31,228 nt of DNA from assembly GCF_000988165.1 (NCBI RefSeq), contig NW_020169346.1, positions 1 to 31,228 of the forward strand, read 5' to 3'. A program made the position numbers and the translations under genes. Every line of letters begins with the position of its first letter. Positions within the stretch are counted from its first letter, which is position 1. Shown here one piece after another: positions 5,393 to 30,271 of the stretch. This DNA is from Vairimorpha ceranae. Taxonomy: Eukaryota > Microsporidia > Nosematidae. The notes under the pieces were generated by a model. The model made no database searches and was not told where the DNA came from. It worked only from the letters and a program-made list of their open reading frames with translations.

Positions 5393-5842
5393 ATGACTGA
5401 AAAGTCTATTAAAAAAACAAAATTATCACAGAGAAGAAGAAATAAGATGCTAGAAGAGTCAAGTTCTTCATCTACAAAAGATATTATTGTACAGAGAGAA
5501 CCATTTGACAATATAAGGCATTATAATACAATTAATGTAAAAAAGTACGCCACATACAAACAAGGAAATTTTAAAAACAAAAATATGAAATCTTTTGCAA
5601 AGAAATTAGACCTCTTTAATTTAAAGTATACTGAGATTTCAAGTAAATATTCGCTAAGACCTAAGAAAAAACTTTGTGTAATAACAGGTCTTCCTTCTAT
5701 GTTTATCTGTCCTTATACACGTCTACCATACTATGATTCTTCAATATACAAATATTTTAAAACTTTAAACAGTGAAGGTATTAATTTTATTTATGAAACT
5801 AAAGACATGTGTAAAAATTTTAATCCTTTTACAAATAAATAA
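5393..5842 (+). CDS. IES6: YL1 C-terminal-domain protein, INO80 subunit Ies6/INO80C-like
   Basis: Basic protein of 149 residues. The last 50 carry a YL1_C-type motif: KKLCVITGLPSMFICPYTRLP followed by YY and a YKYF helix. Upstream, a region with spaced lysines and FKNKNMKSFAKKL resembles the FKN..KKWKNLKQ segment of INO80C/Ies6. The domain occurs in Ies6 (INO80 remodeller) and in the larger Vps72/Swc2 (SWR1). The small size and absence of the long acidic H2A.Z-binding part favour Ies6, which binds the Arp5 module. An ACCC signal lies two bases before the ATG. It is only 38 bp downstream of the polymerase I gene and convergent with the EED-like gene (71 bp gap). The family assignment is fairly secure; the choice of Ies6 over Vps72 is inference. 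Confidence 0.7.
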   Translation: MTEKSIKKTKLSQRRRNKMLEESSSSSTKDIIVQREPFDNIRHYNTINVKKYATYKQGNFKNKNMKSFAKKLDLFNLKYTEISSKYSLRPKKKLCVITGLPSMFICPYTRLPYYDSSIYKYFKTLNSEGINFIYETKDMCKNFNPFTNK

Positions 5843-5913: not shown

Positions 5914-6951
5914 TTAAATGAGATCTAATACATCTATATCCTTATTATTAATATTGTACGCTTTTATTTGACTTCCCTCGTACAAAACAAATATTTTTAA
6001 TCCGTTTGTTGTAAATGATATTCCTTCCTGTTTGGAAGTATCTATTTTACTAACCTCTAAATTTTTATCTGTAATTTTTAATAAATCTAATGTAAAAATA
6101 CCATTGTATTTGTTTAGGCATATTAAAGAATGTTCTATGACATTTACATCAACTGTGTCTTCAAGACACAGCTCTTTGATAAAAATAAAATTATGTTTAA
6201 GTTTTCTTTTTTCTTTAAATTTATATTCTGTTTTATGAGCATTTACATTCACATTATAAACAGTATCACTGTTATTTGTTGTCGTTTTATCATCACTATA
6301 ATAGCACTTATAATTATTAATATATTTAGGTTTACAAATCGTAATCTTTCCATCTTGAGAAAGTGTTAGGACCAACTCGCCATAAAATAATGTTTTTATG
6401 ATTATATCACGATGTAAATTAATAATTGTACACTGTGGCTTATAGGATTCTTCCTGGCAGATATCCCAAATCATGCACGATTGATCTAAACCGGCACTAA
6501 GAATAGTATTTTCTTTGACATCTAAAGATAAAACTATATCTTTATGTCCAGTAAACTGTTTAATTTTTTTACTGAAGATAAAATCCCATACTTGTATTGT
6601 GCAATCTTTACCACCCGATACAATTAAGTTATTATAAACTTTAATACATGTAATTTCTGTTTTTGTATCAATATAACTATAAAATACACCCAGTGTTAAA
6701 TTAATTACTGTAATTGTGCCAGGCTTCCCTCCTACCACAATAAAAATATGATCGCGATAATCTAAAAAATCGCAACAGGTATAATATTCATAAACATTTT
6801 CTGAAACATATCTCTGTTTACAAATTAAAATACTGTTCTCAAGTTGTAAGATTACAACAGTTTTTTGGCCAACTGCTGCAATTAGATTCTTAGATTTGTG
6901 AGATCGAATAAATCGTAAATTAGAATTTTGAATGGTAACAGATGAAATCAT
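5914..6951 (-). CDS. WD40 protein resembling EED/ESC (PRC2 core subunit)
   Basis: Protein of 345 residues with WD repeats clearest at about 55-165 (GGKDCTIQVWDF, GHKDIVLSLDV..TILSAGLDQSCMIWDI). Several stretches follow EED rather than a generic WD40 protein: the first blade (about 11-37) ends in AVGQKTVVILQ, resembling the corresponding EED blade; YYTCCDF at 56-62 matches the FYTCAW segment, so Tyr57 aligns with an aromatic-cage tyrosine of EED; and GHKDIVLS..AGLDQS..IWDI matches GHRDEVLS..CGMDHS..LWRI. In PRC2, EED binds the N-terminus of E(z) and methylated H3K27. The C-terminal blades are diverged, and I cannot locate the Trp-Tyr cage pair. An upstream CCCC signal (plus-strand G-run 6955-6958) supports the start. 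The next gene upstream, divergently oriented, is the E(z)-like SET protein, which strengthens the call. It could still be another WD40 protein. Confidence 0.65.
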   Translation of the reverse strand: MISSVTIQNSNLRFIRSHKSKNLIAAVGQKTVVILQLENSILICKQRYVSENVYEYYTCCDFLDYRDHIFIVVGGKPGTITVINLTLGVFYSYIDTKTEITCIKVYNNLIVSGGKDCTIQVWDFIFSKKIKQFTGHKDIVLSLDVKENTILSAGLDQSCMIWDICQEESYKPQCTIINLHRDIIIKTLFYGELVLTLSQDGKITICKPKYINNYKCYYSDDKTTTNNSDTVYNVNVNAHKTEYKFKEKRKLKHNFIFIKELCLEDTVDVNVIEHSLICLNKYNGIFTLDLLKITDKNLEVSKIDTSKQEGISFTTNGLKIFVLYEGSQIKAYNINNKDIDVLDLI

Positions 6952-7966
6952 GACGGGGTTAAATAGGTAACTTATGTATGACTGAAAAAAATAAATGGCT
7001 TTAATATTTAAAATGTATATATTTTAAAACATTTTACCATTTTTATAAATTTCTAGAGCTTGATCTTCAGTTCAAAATAATTTAAATTAGCAAAACTTTT
7101 TGAAATTTTTTAATAAAAATATTTTCTTGCCTTGTTAGTACTAAAACATTTTTATCATGTATAAAGAGTTTTAAGTAATAAAAAAATATAGGACAATATT
7201 CCATTGAAGTTCTGAAACAAAAAAGCGGAAGATTTTACAATTTTGTGTAACTTATAAAATCTATTAATAATAACAATATTTTTATTGAAAAGATCAAGAC
7301 GATGTTTAACGACATCTTTTATAAATATGTTTTGACCAAAAACTTGCAATAAATACATTAAATAAAAGAAAACGTTTTACTTTTTATAAAATTAATTATA
7401 TTCATACATATACTTATTTTAAATATAACAGAAAGAATTTATTTTGTATACGTTGTTCATTTTAAATTTTGTGTCTTACATATAAAAAATACTATTTTTA
7501 CACTAGATTTGTAAAACTGCCATAAAACCACCTTTTGATTTCTAAAATAATATTTTTTTATTTAGCTCAAAGCTATTTGTTATTTATTAACGTTAGGAAT
7601 GTTTAAATGTGCAAAAACTAAAAATGTTTTTGTATAAAAAACACAGATCTTGAAAAAATCAATAAAATTTTTTTTAAAAACAATTATGTTAAATCAAATA
7701 TATTTCTGTACGGAACCAAATTAAAATAGATGTGAATTATAACATTTTAAAGTTAATTAATTGTGTAATTGTAGATAAGATACCTTTTTATAAAATCATT
7801 TATTGCAAATATCTTAGTTTTTTAAATTCTTCTTTTGTTCAAGTTAAGTAACATTCTAAATGATTAATAATAGATCTATATTCAACAATAACAAAAAGTA
7901 ATTTATGTTATAAAATCTTTGTAATTATTTAACTACATTTAGCTTATTTTTAATCAATGCCCTTTT
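6952..7966. other. Shared intergenic region between the EED-like and E(z)-like genes
   Basis: About 1 kb separates the two divergent start codons. Each gene has its own C-run signal beside its ATG (6955-6958 on the minus strand, 7960-7962 on the plus strand). The only sizeable open frame is a 67-codon minus-strand stretch at 7155-7358 without a C-run and with no recognisable motif, which I do not accept as a gene. No RNA gene or repeat is visible. The region could act as a bidirectional promoter, but it is long for that. Confidence 0.5.
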
Positions 7967-9391
7967 ATGTATAAAGAACTAGAATGGGCATTTAATAATT
8001 ACATTCTAGAATGTAAATTGATAATTAATGAAAACAAAAAGCATGTATTGCCTCCAAGTATAGTAAAAAACGTTTTGATCCCAAATAAAATCGGTATAAT
8101 TCCCCATATATCGACATTACTACCTTCAAGGTTTTATAACGAATCTTTGATTAATGTACATACAGAAGATGAACTGACCCTGCGATTTATACCGTATTTA
8201 GAAAATACCACCCATTTAGATGTTCAACATTTTAATGATACTACGATATACGATTTATCGTACAATCAAAACAATGAAATATTAAGTAGGTTACTAGAAA
8301 ATAGTAGCACGGTAGAAGTAGCAGAGTTACTGAACATTGAACCTGAATATTTTACCAAACAGTGTGCTAAAATGAATATGTATGAATGTTCTTATGATTC
8401 GCTTTTTAATGAAATGCGTAAATATTTCTGTGCGAGATGTTTAATTTTTGGCTGTAAAATCCACACAATTCGTACAAAGACCTGTTTTGATTACGAAAGC
8501 GAAGTTAAATGTTACTGCAAAGATATTAATAATCCTGCGCAAACTACTTTAAATTCTAATTTAATCATAATTGAAAAAGATAAGATTAAAGAAAATTTGA
8601 AAATGTTTAACAATGATAAGTGTTTAACGTCTTTTAATTTATTTTTAAAATATAATATAACAATATCATGTAGAGACTTGGGTAAAAAAATGCCGCTTTA
8701 TAAAAAAATATTAAGAAGCATGTATTCTATAACTAATAGTAACAAACTTCCTGAAGTATGTGATCACACTGGAAAGTGTTACCAAAATGCGCGATGTATT
8801 TGTTTTACAAATGGAACAGGATGTGATTCAAAATGTTTGTGTACTTTTTGTAATTATATGTTTTACGGTTGTAAGTGTAAAAATAGTTGTACGAAAAGAT
8901 GCAGTTGTAGTAAAATTAATAAAACATGCGACGAACATTGTGAATGTCATTGCGACAGTAAAAATATGTCTAGTTGTGAATGGTACATACCTTTAATTTA
9001 CAAGTCTACATATATTTACAAAAGTGCTAAGAAAGGACTAGGATGCTTTGCTGGTGAAAATATTAAGAAAGACGAGTTTGTAATTGAATATGTTGGCGAA
9101 ATTATTTCCAATGATGAAGGGAACAGAAGGGCAAATTTTTATGACGCAAATGGTCTGTCATATATATTTGAATATACTGATAAGCACTGTTTAGATGCAT
9201 TTTTAGTTGGAAATAATTCTAGGTTTATAAACCACTCTACTAACCAAAATTTATACATCAAAAAATTATGGATGAAGCGTGCACTGCGCATTTGTTTTTA
9301 TGCAGCCCGTAATATAAAGTTAGGAGAAGAGCTGTTTTTTAATTATAATTATAGTGATGAGTATAAAAAGAAATTTAATTTGATTGATTAA
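7967..9391 (+). CDS. EZH: E(z)/EZH2-like histone H3 lysine methyltransferase (CXC + SET)
   Basis: Predicted H3K27 methyltransferase, catalytic subunit of PRC2, 474 residues (human EZH2 has about 750). Domains: an N-terminal helix (1-25) that could be a short EED-binding segment; a Cys-rich segment at 154-185 beginning FCARCLIFGCKIH, very like the MCSS/SANT2 junction of EZH2 (FCRRCFKYDCFLH); a CXC (pre-SET) zinc region at about 265-333 with more than 15 cysteines; and a C-terminal SET domain at about 350-466 with GLGCFAGENIKKDEFVIEY, GEIIS, RFINHS (N422, H423) and ELFFNYNYS. There is no post-SET cysteine cluster, as in E(z). EZH2 has ELFFDYRYS, so Asp is replaced by Asn here. The start is supported by CCC at 7960-7962. 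The EED-like gene lies divergently upstream. The target residue is inferred from family only. Confidence 0.82.
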   Translation: MYKELEWAFNNYILECKLIINENKKHVLPPSIVKNVLIPNKIGIIPHISTLLPSRFYNESLINVHTEDELTLRFIPYLENTTHLDVQHFNDTTIYDLSYNQNNEILSRLLENSSTVEVAELLNIEPEYFTKQCAKMNMYECSYDSLFNEMRKYFCARCLIFGCKIHTIRTKTCFDYESEVKCYCKDINNPAQTTLNSNLIIIEKDKIKENLKMFNNDKCLTSFNLFLKYNITISCRDLGKKMPLYKKILRSMYSITNSNKLPEVCDHTGKCYQNARCICFTNGTGCDSKCLCTFCNYMFYGCKCKNSCTKRCSCSKINKTCDEHCECHCDSKNMSSCEWYIPLIYKSTYIYKSAKKGLGCFAGENIKKDEFVIEYVGEIISNDEGNRRANFYDANGLSYIFEYTDKHCLDAFLVGNNSRFINHSTNQNLYIKKLWMKRALRICFYAARNIKLGEELFFNYNYSDEYKKKFNLID

Positions 9392-11155: not shown

Positions 11156-12112
11156 TTAATCTTTTGTAAATAATTCATTATGATGAAATGACGGATTAAC
11201 TATAACTGGTGGTCTTAATTCCTGACTATTACCTTGTAAAACACAAATAATGCTCTGTCCCAATTTTTTAAAGAGCTCGTCAATGTAGCCGATGAATCTT
11301 CTAGTCGAGTTATTTATGTTAAGAGATACAATAGCAGCTGTTTCCAAACCAATTTCTTTAAAAGAAGATTCCAGTCTTTTTTCAAATTCATTAAGCAACT
11401 TTTCAATTTCCTTTAGCTGGTTATGAAGTTTATCCTCAATGATTTTATTGGCTATCCCTTTTTCTGCAGCTGTTAATCGTCTAAACAAGCGCTCTATTTC
11501 GCCAATTAAATCGCGCAATCCACTATTTATCAGATCTATAGCAGCTGAGGTATCAACCACAAGAGTCTTAGATAACATTTTTTTTTCTGCAATATCTGTA
11601 ATGGCTTTAGCAATTGAGGCATTAGATTTTTTATAAAGCTGTAAAACAGCATCTTGAAAATCTGCATTTGTATTACTAATAAGCTCTACCAACTCTCTTC
11701 CTATTTCATTACTATAATTGCATAGGATTTTTATTATTCTTTTTTCAAGTTCATTTATATCATTTCTAAGACGCTCGGAGATAGTTTTGTTTATAGCTCC
11801 TATACCTGCAATAATTTTATGCTTTAATTCTTCTGTAAACCATCTTGCAAATTTATCAATATTCAAATTTACTTGTAATAAAAGTCCTTGAATAAGCTGA
11901 AGATTTTCTTCAACATACGGACGTATGTTCCTTCTTCTTCTATCTCGTCGATGTGTACTACTTGAAGATGATGAATCTGAACTTGATCTATTATTGCTAT
12001 CTCTGAGTGGTACACATTTTGGTACACGAGGAACTATTTCAAATCCTTCACTTCTTCTACGCCTTCGTCTTGCATATATGTCTATAATCATCAAAGGTAA
12101 ACATAAAATCAT
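11156..12112 (-). CDS. Secreted helical protein with Arg-rich N-terminus; paralogue of the gene at 28394-30271
   Basis: Protein of 318 residues. A short hydrophobic leader (MILCLPLMIIDIYA) looks like a signal peptide and is followed by RRRRRR, a stretch with PKCVPL, a run of serines (about 44-51) and a second Arg cluster. Residues 66-300 are predicted almost fully helical or coiled-coil and align with residues 375-610 of the Cys-Arg-Pro repeat protein. Matching landmarks are DKFARWFTEELKHKI / NKLARFFAEEIKAKL, LNEFEKRLE / IEEFEKRLA and QELRPPV / CEFRPLL. PKCVPL may be a remnant of the repeat region of the longer paralogue. No known family recognised. Secretion, basic charge and family expansion suggest a spore-wall or polar-tube component, which is inference only. 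There is no C-run before the start; instead a motif shared with the paralogue sits 42 nt upstream. Confidence 0.75.
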   Translation of the reverse strand: MILCLPLMIIDIYARRRRRRSEGFEIVPRVPKCVPLRDSNNRSSSDSSSSSSTHRRDRRRRNIRPYVEENLQLIQGLLLQVNLNIDKFARWFTEELKHKIIAGIGAINKTISERLRNDINELEKRIIKILCNYSNEIGRELVELISNTNADFQDAVLQLYKKSNASIAKAITDIAEKKMLSKTLVVDTSAAIDLINSGLRDLIGEIERLFRRLTAAEKGIANKIIEDKLHNQLKEIEKLLNEFEKRLESSFKEIGLETAAIVSLNINNSTRRFIGYIDELFKKLGQSIICVLQGNSQELRPPVIVNPSFHHNELFTKD

Positions 12113-18037: not shown

Positions 18038-19111
18038 TTAATCATAAGGACTAATTAATAAATGCTCATCAACATCATCCATTTCAATATGAAGCGGCAC
18101 ATCAATTATTTCGGTAATAGTCTCCAATTCACTTTCAATAATTAGCCTAAGTTTTTCAGCATGCCGTCTCTTTAGTTGCTTAAAATCGAAAGCAATAGAA
18201 CACTGCTCATCACTACCTTTAATATCAAATTTTATTTCTTTACCTTTTTTGTAATGTTCTCCCATACCTTCTACTGTAATATTATAGTCAATATTATTTA
18301 TAAGATACTTGATATTCTCTGTACTCTTTTCAAATAGCGAATTTTCAATAGTAAAAATAATGAACTTATAACCTTCAGTACTCTTTTCAATTAACATTTT
18401 TCTATACAAATTTACAAAATTGTAAACATCATTTAATAAAAACATACACTGTTTATAAACTTGATCATTATTAGTATTTTCTGTACATTGCAAAAGAGGT
18501 AAACTATTCTTTCTACACAGGTACTGTTCAATATAAGCTTTCATTTCCTTTATATCTTTAATACATTGAAAATAACCTTTATATTGATTTAATACTTCTA
18601 CAAATTTAGAGTCTTTATTATCTAATTCATTCAAAATACCTTTTAATAAAAAGATTGTATGTATTCGATTAAAATATCCTTCACCTAAAAATCCTTTTAA
18701 AAGAATATTATGACAAAACATGGCATACTGATTTTCTAACGGTTTTAATTCATAAAACCTATTATCATTAGACATTACAAGACTGTAATAAGGAGACACA
18801 GATACATAATCAGCTTCAGGTGTCTGCTTTGTTTTCTTATAAAAATTAAATATTTCGCCACGGAACAAATTAGGATCCAGATTATCAATTGTACCTCTCT
18901 TTAATAAAATCATAGCGAAACCGTCAAATTTTTGGCGAAAATTCTTTTCAAAGCTAACGCTTAGAGAATCATTTATCCTTTTCTTAACAGATGTAGAGTA
19001 ATATAAGAATAATACATTATTTCTGCCTAATAATTTAGATGCAGTAAGCCGCAAATTTCCTGGTATAAACATACTGCAATAAATAGGTACTGCTCTGAAT
19101 AAGATACTCAT
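18038..19111 (-). CDS. Unrecognised protein, tandem paralogue of the next gene upstream
   Basis: Protein of 357 residues, family not recognised. It is clearly homologous along its length to the protein at 19649-20680: YYS near residues 37-39; FNFYKKTKQTPEADYVSVSPYY / FNFYTVKSITPKANYITLSPYY; then EL.P..NQY..FC.N.LLK; a helical middle; FLLNDVYNFVNLYR / FLNDLYNIINLYK; a strand-rich end with IDYNITVEG, FD.KG and a closing VIDVP-type motif. The first 16 residues are mildly hydrophobic but not a clear signal peptide. CCC on the minus strand (plus-strand GGG 19118-19120) supports the start, and the second in-frame Met at residue 14 is also at residue 14 of the paralogue. Probably a lineage-specific family. 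Confidence 0.8.
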   Translation of the reverse strand: MSILFRAVPIYCSMFIPGNLRLTASKLLGRNNVLFLYYSTSVKKRINDSLSVSFEKNFRQKFDGFAMILLKRGTIDNLDPNLFRGEIFNFYKKTKQTPEADYVSVSPYYSLVMSNDNRFYELKPLENQYAMFCHNILLKGFLGEGYFNRIHTIFLLKGILNELDNKDSKFVEVLNQYKGYFQCIKDIKEMKAYIEQYLCRKNSLPLLQCTENTNNDQVYKQCMFLLNDVYNFVNLYRKMLIEKSTEGYKFIIFTIENSLFEKSTENIKYLINNIDYNITVEGMGEHYKKGKEIKFDIKGSDEQCSIAFDFKQLKRRHAEKLRLIIESELETITEIIDVPLHIEMDDVDEHLLISPYD

Positions 19112-19648: not shown

Positions 19649-20680
19649 TTATTCAGAAAAAAAAGTAATAGCATTAGACACCCCTTCATTTATCAAACAG
19701 CCAGGTACATCTACCACCTCACTTTCACTTTCTTTTCCATTACTTATTGTTATTTTTAACTTATTAATATCTCCTTGTCTTAGTTGATCGCGATCAAATA
19801 CAAAAGCATATTTATTATTATCACCTCGTACATCAAATAATATATCTTTACTATTCTTATTGTTATCATAAAACCCTTCTACTGTCACATTATATTCCTT
19901 TTTATTAATTATTAACTTTGTATTATTTCTTAAATCATTTATTAATGACTCATCCACGTTAAATATTACAAATTTATTATCATTCGTAATATTATTAGTA
20001 CTTATTTCTTTATATAAATTTATTATGTTATATAAATCATTTAAAAATGGCATTTCTTTTACAAATCTTTCTTCATCGGTAACATGTAATAGTTTCTCTA
20101 AATAATTATTCTTAGTGTTAAAATTAGATCTTTTAATGAAATTTTCAATATAACTATTAACCTCAAATACATTACTAAAAAACGTTAGATTATCCTGTAA
20201 TCTAGTTAATGCTCTTTTAAATAATGTCTCTGGTAGTATTAGTTCATCTAATATATTTTTAAATACATTTTGATAATCTTCTTCTAGTATTTTTTTAAGT
20301 AGTACATTTTTACAAAATAAAGAGTATTGATTCCCAGCAGGTTGTAATTCAAAAATATTATTGTACATTAATATTAACTTATAATAGGGTGATAAGGTAA
20401 TATAATTAGCTTTAGGAGTTATAGATTTTACAGTGTAAAAATTAAAAAGTTGATCATTAAATAAATCTTTGTTACTTTTTCTTAATAAAAGAGAAGATTC
20501 TGATAGTAAATCGTAATTATTTACATTTTTTTTGTATTGGATATCTAACTGTTCACCTGAAATTGAAGAATAATATAAATGAGGTATAATTTTACTACAA
20601 GATGATCTTAATAGACCAAAATCTACATTTTTAACAAGCATTGTCGCTCTCAAATTATAAACTAGTAATAAATAATGCAT
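19649..20680 (-). CDS. Unrecognised protein, tandem paralogue of 18038-19111
   Basis: Protein of 343 residues in the same orientation as its paralogue. Shared landmarks are YYSS near 37, SITPKANYITLSPYY, ELQPAGNQYSLFCKNVLLK, a helical centre, LNDLYNIINLYKEI, KEYNVTVEGFYDNNK, FDVRGDNN, FVFDRDQLRQ and VVDVP near the end. The N-terminus (MHYLLLVYNL) is hydrophobic, possibly a weak leader. No C-run is visible before either candidate start; I keep the first Met because the distance to the conserved YYS matches the paralogue within one residue. Unlike the paralogue, the sequence is rich in Asn and Ile and the DNA is more AT-rich, suggesting faster drift. Function unknown. Confidence 0.75.
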   Translation of the reverse strand: MHYLLLVYNLRATMLVKNVDFGLLRSSCSKIIPHLYYSSISGEQLDIQYKKNVNNYDLLSESSLLLRKSNKDLFNDQLFNFYTVKSITPKANYITLSPYYKLILMYNNIFELQPAGNQYSLFCKNVLLKKILEEDYQNVFKNILDELILPETLFKRALTRLQDNLTFFSNVFEVNSYIENFIKRSNFNTKNNYLEKLLHVTDEERFVKEMPFLNDLYNIINLYKEISTNNITNDNKFVIFNVDESLINDLRNNTKLIINKKEYNVTVEGFYDNNKNSKDILFDVRGDNNKYAFVFDRDQLRQGDINKLKITISNGKESESEVVDVPGCLINEGVSNAITFFSE

Positions 20681-22202: not shown

Positions 22203-22206
22203 ATGT
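22055..22206 (+). repeat. 76-bp tandem duplication covering the start region of the kleisin gene
   Basis: Copy 1 is 22055-22130 and copy 2 is 22131-22206, with about 90 percent identity. Each ends in an AAGAATGT start context. The C-run is intact in copy 2 (AACCCCCAAGAATG) but weakened in copy 1 (AACACCTAAGAATG). The gene uses the copy 2 ATG at 22203. Confidence 0.85.
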
Positions 22207-23066
22207 ACACACTTTCTTATATTTTAAAAATATGTACAAAAGTAACAGAAAAGACACTTAAAAAGACAGATATAAAACAAATAGACATTTATAAAATGAT
22301 TGTAGATACTACACTTACTAGAAGTACAAAAATATTAGTTACTATAATAAAGATATACTGTAAAAAAGCTAAATATTTATTAGATGATTCTAATGAATTA
22401 GTAATATTACTTAGTAATCAAAAGAAAGAAAAGAAAATAACTGTTAAGAAGAAACAAGAAGAAGATGTATACATATCTGATATTATAGTACCAGAATATT
22501 CTTATGATAATACTATAGATCTTTCTATGGAACCTATAAGAGAATATGAAGATACTAAAGATAGTACGCTTTTAAAAAGTTTTAATATTCCAATAAAACG
22601 GAAGAAAATAGAAGATGAGGTGATAGAATACGATAATAATTATTATAAAGAACATATATGCAATATTAAAGGAGGAATGCCATTTGCCGGGTGTAAATAT
22701 TTGACACACTTAAATTTTAATATACCTAGTTTTTTTAATGATAAATTAAAATTGGCTGTAGAAACAATGAGAGATGAAACAGCGATAGAGCAATATAATG
22801 AAATGTCAATAGATGATTACAATGATGTAAGCATGTATAGTGAGAATGAGCAGTATTTATCACATGATATTACTTATGAAGATACAGAGAAATTCTTAGA
22901 TCTTACAGTCCTTCCTCCTTCATTTATTTTTAATGATCAAATAGAACATTTAGACAGAGAAGACAAAGCTAAGCTTTTTTTTGATTTATTACGACAGACT
23001 TCTTTTGGTAAAATTGAAGTTAAGCAAGAATACCCAGATTCAAAAATATTCTGTAAAATATTGTAA
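22203..23066 (+). CDS. Cohesin kleisin subunit (Rad21/Scc1 or Rec8 type), very short
   Basis: Protein of 287 residues. The N-terminal kleisin domain is recognisable at about 1-75: after an initial helix, LTRSTKILVTIIKIYCKKAKYLLDDSNELVILL matches the family pattern L-R-S-x-LL-G-VV-R-IY-x-KA-KYLL-x-D-x-N. The C-terminal winged-helix region is at about 250-287 (KAKLFFDLLRQTSFGKIEVKQEYPDSKI), matching A..F..LL-L...-I...Q-E-PY-DI. The linker is reduced to about 175 residues, against several hundred in yeast Scc1. Kleisins close the Smc1-Smc3 ring and hold sister chromatids together. Mitotic Scc1 versus meiotic Rec8 cannot be decided. CCCCC five bases before the ATG fixes the start. Confidence 0.78.
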   Translation: MYTLSYILKICTKVTEKTLKKTDIKQIDIYKMIVDTTLTRSTKILVTIIKIYCKKAKYLLDDSNELVILLSNQKKEKKITVKKKQEEDVYISDIIVPEYSYDNTIDLSMEPIREYEDTKDSTLLKSFNIPIKRKKIEDEVIEYDNNYYKEHICNIKGGMPFAGCKYLTHLNFNIPSFFNDKLKLAVETMRDETAIEQYNEMSIDDYNDVSMYSENEQYLSHDITYEDTEKFLDLTVLPPSFIFNDQIEHLDREDKAKLFFDLLRQTSFGKIEVKQEYPDSKIFCKIL

Positions 23067-28393: not shown

Positions 28394-30271
28394 TTATATA
28401 TTTTCTTCTTGATTAACATTCCAGTTTTCTCTAATTTCACCGCCAAATAATAATGGTCGAAATTCGCAGTTTCTTCCCTTAAGAATTATGATAATTCCTT
28501 CACCTATTTGTTGTAGAATGTGCTCCAAGTCTACTAATAATTTTCTTGCGTTTTGATCAAGTATATTTCTTATAAATATTATTTCTTCTTCTGCCAAATC
28601 TGCAAAGAGACGAGCAAGTCTCTTTTCAAATTCTTCGATGAGTTTTGTCACTTCTTTAATAATTTCCGATTTCTTGTCATTTACAATTTTTTCTATAGAA
28701 GCTTTTTCTGTTTGTGTAAATTTTTTAAAGATATTTGGAACTTCTATTGTAATCTCATTAAATCTGTTTGTAAGGATGTCGAGTATTTTGTCTAGCGGCT
28801 GCTTATTAGGCGACTGTGGTGGTTTGGTTGCAGCAACTAATGCTGCAATGTCAGATAAGATTAATTTATTAGCATTTCTAATATTCATTGTTAAAATATT
28901 TAGAATTTCTTCATTTGTATTAGTTATCAACGCATCTGTATCTCTTAAAATACATTTATTAATATCTATTACAACATCTGCGATTCTTTGTTCTAGTTTT
29001 TTAAAATCTCCTGTTGCTTTATTTCCAGCACCTGTTATTATTAACTGAAGGCCTTCAAGTAATTTGGCTTTGATTTCTTCTGCAAAGAATCTTGCAAGTT
29101 TATTTACTTCAAATGAAGCTTGTAATATTATCTGACGTATAGCAGTAACAGATCCTCCTGTGTTTCTGTTTCTTACTTCACGAACATGTCTGTGTCTTCT
29201 TCGTCTTCTTAGAATTGGATCACACTGTGGTCTGCAGTCGGGTTCACAAACTGGTCTGCAATCATCATTAAATCTTCTATTAAATTTAGACCTTTGAAAG
29301 GGTTCACAGATTGGTCGACATAGTCGCCTAGACCTTGTAAAGATGTTATCTTCACTCATTATCCTATATTGTCCATCTAAAGGTTCACATGTAGGTTCAT
29401 AATGTTCGTAAGAATATTCACTACTCGAATATTTGCTTTCGCTATCTCTGCTAGTAGAATATGACTCATGGTGTTTATTAGATTTATTAACGCAGACTGG
29501 CTTGCATTCAGGAACATATAACTTTTTCTTAGGTTTATAATTATGTTTTTTGGGTTTATGTAAAATGCTCCTTTTTGGTGCACAAACTGGTTTGCAGATC
29601 TGCTCCCATTTTGGTCTGTATTTAGTTTTCCATCTACGTTTTATATGTTTGTGAAAACGGTGTGTCGATTTGGGTCTACAAACTGGTTTACACACAGGGG
29701 CTAGCTTTCTTTGATGTTTTTGATCATTACTCATTATGCGAAACTGTTCTCCACATACAGGTCGACATACAGGTTCCCTTTCCCTACAGTCAATAAAGCT
29801 ACTAATTTCGCTAGAGCTAGAATCTCTACTATATGATATAGAACTGCTATGAGATTCTGAACTTTGTCCACAAATCGGTCTACATCGTGGTCTCCAATAA
29901 TTTTTTCTGCGCCTATGATGAATAAATTTAAATCTGGGTCTACATTCAGGTCTACATCCTGGTCTACATTCAGGTCTGCACTTTGGTCTACTACCAGAAT
30001 CACTTTCAGATTTAATATCAAATTCATGTCGATTTCGAAATCTAAATCTTGGCTCACACACAGGTCTGCAAACAGGTTCTCTGTTTCTATATAATCCTCT
30101 TTTTTTACACAGATTAAATATATTTGGAAATCTAAATGTCTGATAAATCTGATTTTCAGAAGAATCTTGTTTGGTTTCTATATTAACTGTATTCTCATTA
30201 TTTCGCTCTTTTAAAGTATTTTCTACAGAGTTCATTTTTACAAACTTTGTAAAAAAGATAGCTATTAACAT
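28394..30271 (-). CDS. Cys-Arg-Pro repeat protein with helical C-terminal domain; spore-wall or polar-tube candidate
   Basis: Protein of 625 residues. Short hydrophobic start (MLIAIFFTKF), then from about 65 to 352 many copies of C-x-P-x-C (CRPVCEP, CKPVCRP) among Arg, Lys and His. There are two Ser-rich patches (137-158, 269-288), each followed by a repeated module: EPVCRPVCGEQFRIMSND (166-183) and EPTCEPLDGQYRIMSEDN (292-309). Residues 375-610 are helical and homologous to the protein at 11156-12112. Regularly spaced Cys pairs suggest a disulfide-linked extracellular structure, as in microsporidian spore wall and polar tube; no named family fits, so that is inference. The leader is short for a signal peptide. 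The first Met (30271) is preferred over Met13 (30235) because the upstream motif shared with the paralogue is then at the same 42-nt distance. No C-run. Confidence 0.8.
   Translation of the reverse strand: MLIAIFFTKFVKMNSVENTLKERNNENTVNIETKQDSSENQIYQTFRFPNIFNLCKKRGLYRNREPVCRPVCEPRFRFRNRHEFDIKSESDSGSRPKCRPECRPGCRPECRPRFKFIHHRRRKNYWRPRCRPICGQSSESHSSSISYSRDSSSSEISSFIDCREREPVCRPVCGEQFRIMSNDQKHQRKLAPVCKPVCRPKSTHRFHKHIKRRWKTKYRPKWEQICKPVCAPKRSILHKPKKHNYKPKKKLYVPECKPVCVNKSNKHHESYSTSRDSESKYSSSEYSYEHYEPTCEPLDGQYRIMSEDNIFTRSRRLCRPICEPFQRSKFNRRFNDDCRPVCEPDCRPQCDPILRRRRRHRHVREVRNRNTGGSVTAIRQIILQASFEVNKLARFFAEEIKAKLLEGLQLIITGAGNKATGDFKKLEQRIADVVIDINKCILRDTDALITNTNEEILNILTMNIRNANKLILSDIAALVAATKPPQSPNKQPLDKILDILTNRFNEITIEVPNIFKKFTQTEKASIEKIVNDKKSEIIKEVTKLIEEFEKRLARLFADLAEEEIIFIRNILDQNARKLLVDLEHILQQIGEGIIIILKGRNCEFRPLLFGGEIRENWNVNQEENI
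29935..29983 (-). repeat. Tandem codon repeat encoding CRPECRPGCRPECRP
   Basis: Residues 98-112 of the repeat protein are encoded by nearly identical 12-bp units (minus-strand TGTAGACCWGRA type), the most regular part of the Cys-Arg-Pro region and a likely site of length variation. Confidence 0.75.

What the first reader, a model, noticed from the sequence alone, without database searches (positions are those of the whole stretch)
5914..9391. Putative Polycomb Repressive Complex 2 core as a divergent gene pair in a microsporidian-like genome
An E(z)-type protein (MCSS-like FCARC segment, CXC region, SET without post-SET) stands divergent to a WD40 protein whose closest resemblance by eye is EED, including the tyrosine of the first aromatic-cage position (Tyr57). 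PRC2 subunits have been lost in many unicellular fungi, so retention of both subunits, side by side, in a minimal genome would point to H3K27-type silencing of parasite genes. What is seen: domains and motifs. What is known: E(z) and EED bind directly. Inferred: that the two proteins form a complex here. SUZ12 is not in the window.
Basis: partly seen in the sequence, partly recalled or inferred. Interest (0 to 1): 0.8.

Follow-up and report, generated by a model that had tools for sequence, protein, structure and literature searches.

The report
Divergent Polycomb PRC2 core gene pair
A very small parasite genome (a microsporidian) keeps, side by side, the two core genes of the gene-silencing machine called Polycomb complex 2; the pair is real, but the parasite's histones and part of the machine have changed so much that which histone mark it writes is an open question.

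Summary
Gene 7967-9391(+) is an E(z)/EZH2-type SET methyltransferase; gene 5914-6951(-) is an EED-type WD40 protein. The EED call is now supported by structure (EED is the top match of its predicted fold), by a collinear profile match to human EED, and by a 42%-identical relative named 'polycomb protein EED' in Vairimorpha necatrix. The two genes lie close in at least one other species (inferred from equal contig lengths). Tyr57 does match EED Tyr148, but the strand matching Trp364/Tyr365 has no aromatic residue in any of four aligned sequences, so methyl-lysine reading by EED is doubtful. In this assembly E(z) is the only SET gene found; no JmjC, DOT1 or SUZ12 hit; one RbAp48 and one HP1-sized chromodomain protein. 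The more canonical histone H3 has lost the ARKS motif around K27 but keeps ARKT at K9; the second H3 has both changed. So 'PRC2 core pair' is supported; 'H3K27-type silencing' is not shown. E(z) in Microsporidia was already in print, and both proteins are already named in one relative. New is the combination: only SET gene found, eroded cage, eroded K27 motif.

The parts
7967..9391 (+). E(z)/EZH2-type SET methyltransferase, 474 aa
   Evidence: 46% identical to the V. necatrix protein named EZH2 (P0002)
8426..8518 (+). MCSS-like Cys/His segment (residues 154-184, FCARC...CKIH...C)
   Evidence: invariant and near-invariant columns of A2; hhalign over residues 147-168, score 25.0, 0 of 100 shuffles as high, probability 25%
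8759..8980 (+). CXC cysteine-rich region (residues about 265-338)
   Evidence: aligned to EZH2 CXC in phmmer and hhalign; the Pfam CXC models did not hit this protein
9035..9349 (+). SET domain (residues 357-461), counterparts of EZH2 Y641, F667, A677, N688, H689 and Y726 kept
   Evidence: PF00856; residues read off the alignment, which also prints the EZH2 numbering
8132..8299 (+). segment (residues 56-111) matching EZH2 110-176, the region of the SAL and SRM segments (domain limits recalled)
   Evidence: hhalign score 24.0 against a maximum of 17.1 in 100 shuffles, probability 15%; 76.5% with the longer profile
5914..6951 (-). EED-type WD40 propeller, 345 aa
6781..6783 (-). codon of Tyr57, counterpart of EED cage residue Tyr148
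6952..7966 (.). 1,015-bp region between the divergent starts; CCC motif just before each ATG (complement of 6955-6958 for EED, 7960-7962 for E(z))

Best explanation
The two genes encode true orthologs of E(z) and EED. They most likely form a reduced PRC2-type histone H3 methyltransferase core, with RbAp48 and an unrecognised or absent SUZ12, and E(z) is the only SET methyltransferase detected in this assembly. E(z) is the catalytic subunit, wrapped around the EED propeller. The product mark is probably read by the separate HP1-sized chromodomain protein more than by EED, whose methyl-lysine cage is largely unrecognisable. The target is an ARK-like site on the H3 tail: K9, the K27 position of the second H3, or both. 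Shown: orthology, kept catalytic residues, gene order, the other genes found in the assembly, the H3 sequences. Inferred: complex formation, activity, target lysine, reader, silencing role.
Against: No SUZ12/VEFS found (no positive control). The more canonical H3 lacks the ARKS motif at 27. The strand matching EED W364/Y365 has an aromatic residue in 0 of 4 sequences. SANT2 of E(z) is not separable from shuffles (2 of 100 as high) and the EED-binding helix did not align. The E(z) structure model is poor (pLDDT 48.4). Whole-protein HMM sums rank other WD40 proteins above EED, and a same-genome control comes close to or above EED in some scores: local hhalign 83.2 against 85.5, global 60.2 against 60.9, whole-sequence HMM 67.8 against 61.3. 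Lowest EED row and best non-EED row differ by only 1.0 in Z. Same-contig linkage rests on equal contig lengths only.
Confidence: 0.72

Rival explanations
1. Substrate shift: the pair is a PRC2 core that now writes mainly H3K9 methylation (or K9 plus K27, as ciliate E(z) does), so it supplies the mark for the HP1-sized chromodomain protein and stands in for a lost Clr4/SUV39.
For: Only SET locus found yet a chromodomain protein of HP1 size is present. H3 L002 keeps ARKT at K9 and has lost ARKS at K27. Ciliate EZL1 methylates both K9 and K27 (PMC8788455, passages).
Against: The second H3 keeps a lysine at position 27 (TKKTP) and has AKKT, not ARKT, at K9. Sequence cannot show specificity; no chromo shadow domain was found (without control), so the HP1 likeness is size plus one chromodomain.
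Confidence: 0.3
2. Classical H3K27-type methylation on the second H3 (L003) only, as a variant-specific mark.
For: L003 has K27 flanked by K26 and T28; the EZH2 catalytic residues are kept.
Against: R26 and S28 of the usual motif are both changed; the EED side that would read the mark is eroded.
Confidence: 0.25
3. The WD40 protein is not EED but another propeller (WDR5-, RSA4- or Cdc4-like) that lies beside E(z) by chance.
For: Whole-protein HMM sums favour other WD40 families; a same-genome RSA4-like control scores nearly as high as EED in hhalign and higher in whole-sequence HMM score.
Against: Structure ranks EED first by Foldseek E-value and by Z; best single-domain HMM score is EED, 55.9 against 40.7 bits; V. 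necatrix relative named EED; probable linkage to E(z) in other species.
Confidence: 0.05
4. The SET protein is a Clr4/SUV39-type H3K9 enzyme, as an Encephalitozoon enzyme has been read.
For: PMC10158259 (passages) has a table row 'Clr4/EZH2' for Encephalitozoon and argues from Clr4 for H3K9 heterochromatin.
Against: EZH2 beats SUV39H2 by 39 bits; CXC instead of pre-SET, no post-SET; the tree separates it from SUV39H2 and a second SUV39-type chain.
Confidence: 0.03

Closest known systems
PRC2 core E(z)/EZH2 plus EED of animals and of Chaetomium
   Same: CXC-SET architecture with EZH2 catalytic residues; MCSS-like cysteines; EED propeller fold
   Different: E(z) 474 aa against 746; EED lacks the W364/Y365 side of the cage; no SUZ12 found; H3 K27 motif altered
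Cryptococcus neoformans PRC2 (Ezh2, Eed1, Msl1, Bnd1, Ccc1)
   Same: E(z) and EED with RbAp48/Msl1 but no SUZ12; a chromodomain reader exists (PMC7348808, PMC8788455, passages)
   Different: There Ccc1 is a complex subunit and the K9 enzyme Clr4 is present; here the chromodomain protein is HP1-sized (171 aa), its partners are unknown, and no second SET gene was found
Vairimorpha necatrix proteins named EZH2 (P0002) and polycomb protein EED (P0022)
   Same: Both subunits present, on contigs of the same length; 46% and 42% identity
   Different: Known here only as database names; PMC10759460, the V. necatrix annotation paper, has no 'polycomb', 'EZH' or 'EED' in its main text
Ciliate EZL1
   Same: A divergent E(z) possibly serving a wider role than K27 (PMC8788455, passages)
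   Different: Dual K9/K27 activity is measured there; here it is only a hypothesis

Membership tests
E(z)/EZH2 | SET domain closest to EZH2, apart from SUV39, SET2/NSD and MLL | tested here: met
   110.8 bits against 75.2 for MLL3; branch 94/93
E(z)/EZH2 | CXC cysteine region before SET, no pre-SET or post-SET | tested here: met
   Pfam CXC models hit at most 1 of 11 members each and not the window protein
E(z)/EZH2 | MCSS zinc-binding cysteine segment | tested here: met
   22 columns, 0 of 100 shuffles reach the score, hhalign probability 25%; cysteines conserved in A2
E(z)/EZH2 | EED-binding helix and SANT domains | tested here: inconclusive
   the stretch matching EZH2 110-176 aligns (0 of 100 shuffles as high); the helix does not align; SANT2 2 of 100 shuffles as high
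E(z)/EZH2 | catalytic residues of the SET site | tested here: met
   alignment
EED | propeller fold closer to EED than to other WD40 proteins | tested here: met
EED | collinear sequence match to EED beyond generic WD repeats | tested here: met
   (189 columns, E=1.8e-11); single-domain score 55.9 against 40.7 for the best of 5 controls; margins in hhalign are small (85.5 against 83.2 local) and one control has the higher whole-sequence score
EED as H3K27me3 reader | aromatic cage Phe97/Tyr148/Tyr365 plus Trp364 | tested here: not met
   Tyr148 kept as Y/F/F/Y; no F, Y or W in the strand matching W364/Y365 in 4 of 4 sequences; Phe97 position ambiguous
PRC2 complex | RbAp46/48 subunit in the genome | tested here: met
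   L010, PF12265 E=3.5e-26; shared with other complexes, so weak evidence
PRC2 complex | SUZ12 with VEFS box | tested here: inconclusive
   no hit with PF09733 or human VEFS; no positive control; VEFS is hard to detect or missing in some fungi (PMC7348808, PMC9018016, passages)
PRC2 complex | methylates H3 at K27 | not testable with these tools
   H3 K27 context altered: SNKG in L002, TKKTP in L003
PRC2 complex | E(z) and EED bind each other | not testable with these tools
   no two-chain prediction available
SUV39/Clr4 | pre-SET and post-SET cysteines, closest to SUV39 | tested here: not met
   no post-SET in the sequence

The most novel reading that the evidence does not exclude
A 'one-writer' chromatin: after loss of every other SET enzyme and of DOT1, the genome runs all its histone lysine methylation through one reduced PRC2. 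That complex has lost product-reading by EED, has shifted or widened its target from K27 to K9 as the K27 motif of H3 decayed, and hands reading to a single HP1-like chromodomain protein, thereby merging the Polycomb and HP1 systems. The 'Clr4/EZH2' gene of Encephalitozoon might then be the same E(z).
Probability: 0.25. Interest if true: 0.82.

Novelty: new member of a known kind. Interest (0 to 1): 0.55.

Why it matters
If the pair is active, Polycomb-type methylation survives among very small eukaryotic genomes and may be the last histone lysine methyltransferase that this one kept, which says what the core job of the system is. Because the H3 K27 motif and the EED cage have decayed while the catalytic residues have not, it is a natural test of whether E(z) needs K27 or product feedback. 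It also questions the reading of a microsporidian SET enzyme as H3K9 Clr4. The subunits are small, which makes expression and assay practical.

Tried and rejected
Whole-protein HMM ranking of the WD40 protein against the PDB: EED is absent from the 60 rows shown and stands near the end of those. I rejected this as a test, because scores are summed over repeats and designed propellers come first; I used single-domain scores, hhalign and structure instead.

E(z) structure prediction from alignment A2: pLDDT 48.4, not used.

MAFFT and strand-based placement disagree on the register at W364/Y365 and at Phe97, so I claim only that the strand as a whole lacks aromatics.

SUZ12: PF09733 and human VEFS gave nothing, without a control; not evidence of absence. 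Chromo_shadow PF01393 gave nothing, likewise without a control. For JmjC and DOT1 the controls were prokaryotes with mostly weak hits.

Relatives in viral contigs and genome contigs: none. Misses: one search returned no EED that could be matched to V. bombi (P0003), P0005, P0006 or P0009, and no E(z) on a contig of 6,000 bp, the length of P0020's. Of 18 hits (one is the window's own protein, several are not E(z)) 10 went into alignment A2 with the window; 5 of those plus the window made the N-terminal profile. Of 8 histone-fold hits I looked at 7; L009 (E=0.0136, under the cut-off) was not opened. L014, the second chromodomain locus, was not opened.

Papers whose passages had no bearing on a parasite PRC2: PMC10983672 (host genes), PMC12795459 (host H2A ubiquitin), PMC13273367 (an 'epc' name only).

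Full report
What is there. The window is contig C64 of a 4.56-Mb, 116-contig genome. At 5914-6951(-) and 7967-9391(+) stand two intact frames of 345 and 474 aa, divergent and 1,015 bp apart. Both have a CCC motif just before the ATG, as do 12 of 18 main frames in the window within 20 bases, against 288 of 8,972 intergenic 20-mers. That such motifs mark microsporidian genes is recalled; of PMC2803860, on such signals, I saw only the listing. The nearest named relatives of the SET protein are Vairimorpha necatrix and V. bombi, so the genome is microsporidian, near that group (inference).

The SET protein is E(z). Its best solved relative is EZH2 (110.8 bits; a Chaetomium-type EZH2 construct 81.0), then MLL3 75.2, SUV39H2 71.5, NSD3 64.5 and ASH1L 59.4. 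A profile of six sequences aligns to EZH2 519-734 at E=2.8e-33. In a 19-row SET tree the six non-E(z) rows (MLL1, SUV39H2, a second SUV39-type chain, three SET2/NSD-like) sit on one side of a branch with support 94/93, and the window sits with V. necatrix EZH2 at 99/97; long branches make the order among the other rows unsure, and the root is a drawing root. The counterparts of EZH2 Y641, F667, A677, N688, H689 and Y726 are kept (alignment). Before the CXC, an MCSS-like cysteine segment and a stretch matching EZH2 110-176 score above each of 100 shuffles, with low hhalign probabilities (25% and 15%; 76.5% for the second with the longer profile); SANT2 does not stand out. Pfam sees only SET in this protein.

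Linkage. E(z) P0004 and EED P0021 each lie on one contig of 4,791 bp, and V. necatrix EZH2 and EED each on one of 979,666 bp. Equal lengths suggest the same contig; I could not fetch them. If so, the pair is within 4.8 kb in a species whose E(z) is 45% identical over 69% of the query, which speaks against chance adjacency.

The cage. EED reads H3K27me3 with Phe97, Tyr148 and Tyr365, plus Trp364 (PMC8404197, passages). Tyr57 matches Tyr148, and the four sequences (window and three relatives) have Y, F, F, Y. The model strand 266-272, which by order of strands matches EED 363-369, is TVDVNVI, and none of the four sequences has F, Y or W there (read). The Phe97 position is ambiguous. So methyl-lysine reading by this EED is doubtful; it was not tested on coordinates.

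The rest of the machine. With PF00856, with the window E(z), and with an NSD-like protein, the only SET locus found in the assembly is this one. JmjC and DOT1: no hit. RbAp48: L010. Chromodomains: a 171-aa protein of HP1 size (L013) and a second hit in a 1,265-codon frame (L014, not opened). SUZ12: no hit, inconclusive. The assembly's completeness is unknown and only first-look candidates are scored, so absences are of this assembly at this sensitivity.

The substrate. H3 L002 has the higher histone score (138.7 against 106.7) and lies on the same contig as an H4-like gene (L008, by eye). It reads ARIKQSARKTVGGKAPRKQLAAKSTSNKGVSSG: ARKT at K9 kept, ARKS at K27 gone. H3 L003 reads ARTKQSAKKTTGGKAPRKQLAAKSTKKTPTG: a lysine at 27 between K and T, and AKKT at K9. 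The usual motifs are recalled. L004 and the truncated L007 look CENP-A-like (name recalled). I could not compare H3 across Microsporidia; PMC2939574 (passages) notes only that microsporidian H3s are long-branched.

What was known. PMC9692433 (passages) reports E(z)-type genes in Microsporidia and no SET gene in several of them. PMC10158259 (passages) has a 'Clr4/EZH2' row for Encephalitozoon and argues from Clr4 for H3K9 heterochromatin. The surveys PMC9018016, PMC10638273 and PMC8788455 do not hold the word in the main text searched. My searches for Microsporidia with Polycomb, EED, PRC2, H3K27me3 or lysine 27 listed no paper that, from title, start of abstract or the passages I read, describes EED or a PRC2 pair there; several listed papers were not opened, and most subscription journals are not held. 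Every paper cited was seen as passages only, unless marked as listing.

Judgement. A real, probably linked E(z)-EED pair: a new member of a known kind. Whether it writes K27, K9 or both is open and is the interesting part.

Noticed in passing
L002 (G000:C24) and L003 (G000:C95): Two divergent non-centromeric H3 genes with different K9 and K27 contexts and, by my count, tails a few residues longer than usual.
   Followed up: partly
L004 (G000:C45) and L007 (G000:C5, end of contig): Two slightly different CENP-A-like genes; the second is cut by the contig end.
   Followed up: no
window 18038-19111 and 19649-20680 (-): Neighbouring paralogs, 33% identical over 329 aligned positions, no Pfam hit.
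   Followed up: partly
window 11156-12112 and 28394-30271 (-): Two proteins sharing a C-terminal stretch (27% identity over 229 positions); the second has a long Cys-Arg-Pro-rich front part; no Pfam hit over a cut-off.
   Followed up: partly
window 22203-23066 (+): Rad21/Rec8-like kleisin, both ends matching weakly under the Pfam cut-offs.
   Followed up: no
window 5393-5842 (+): Gene with a YL1_C domain, 71 bp tail to tail with the EED gene.
   Followed up: no
L013:1459-1974: 171-aa protein with an N-terminal chromodomain (PF00385 E=4.3e-17) and no recognised chromo shadow domain.
   Followed up: partly
window, 18 main frames: CCC/GGG within 20 bases before the ATG in 12 of 18 frames.
   Followed up: yes
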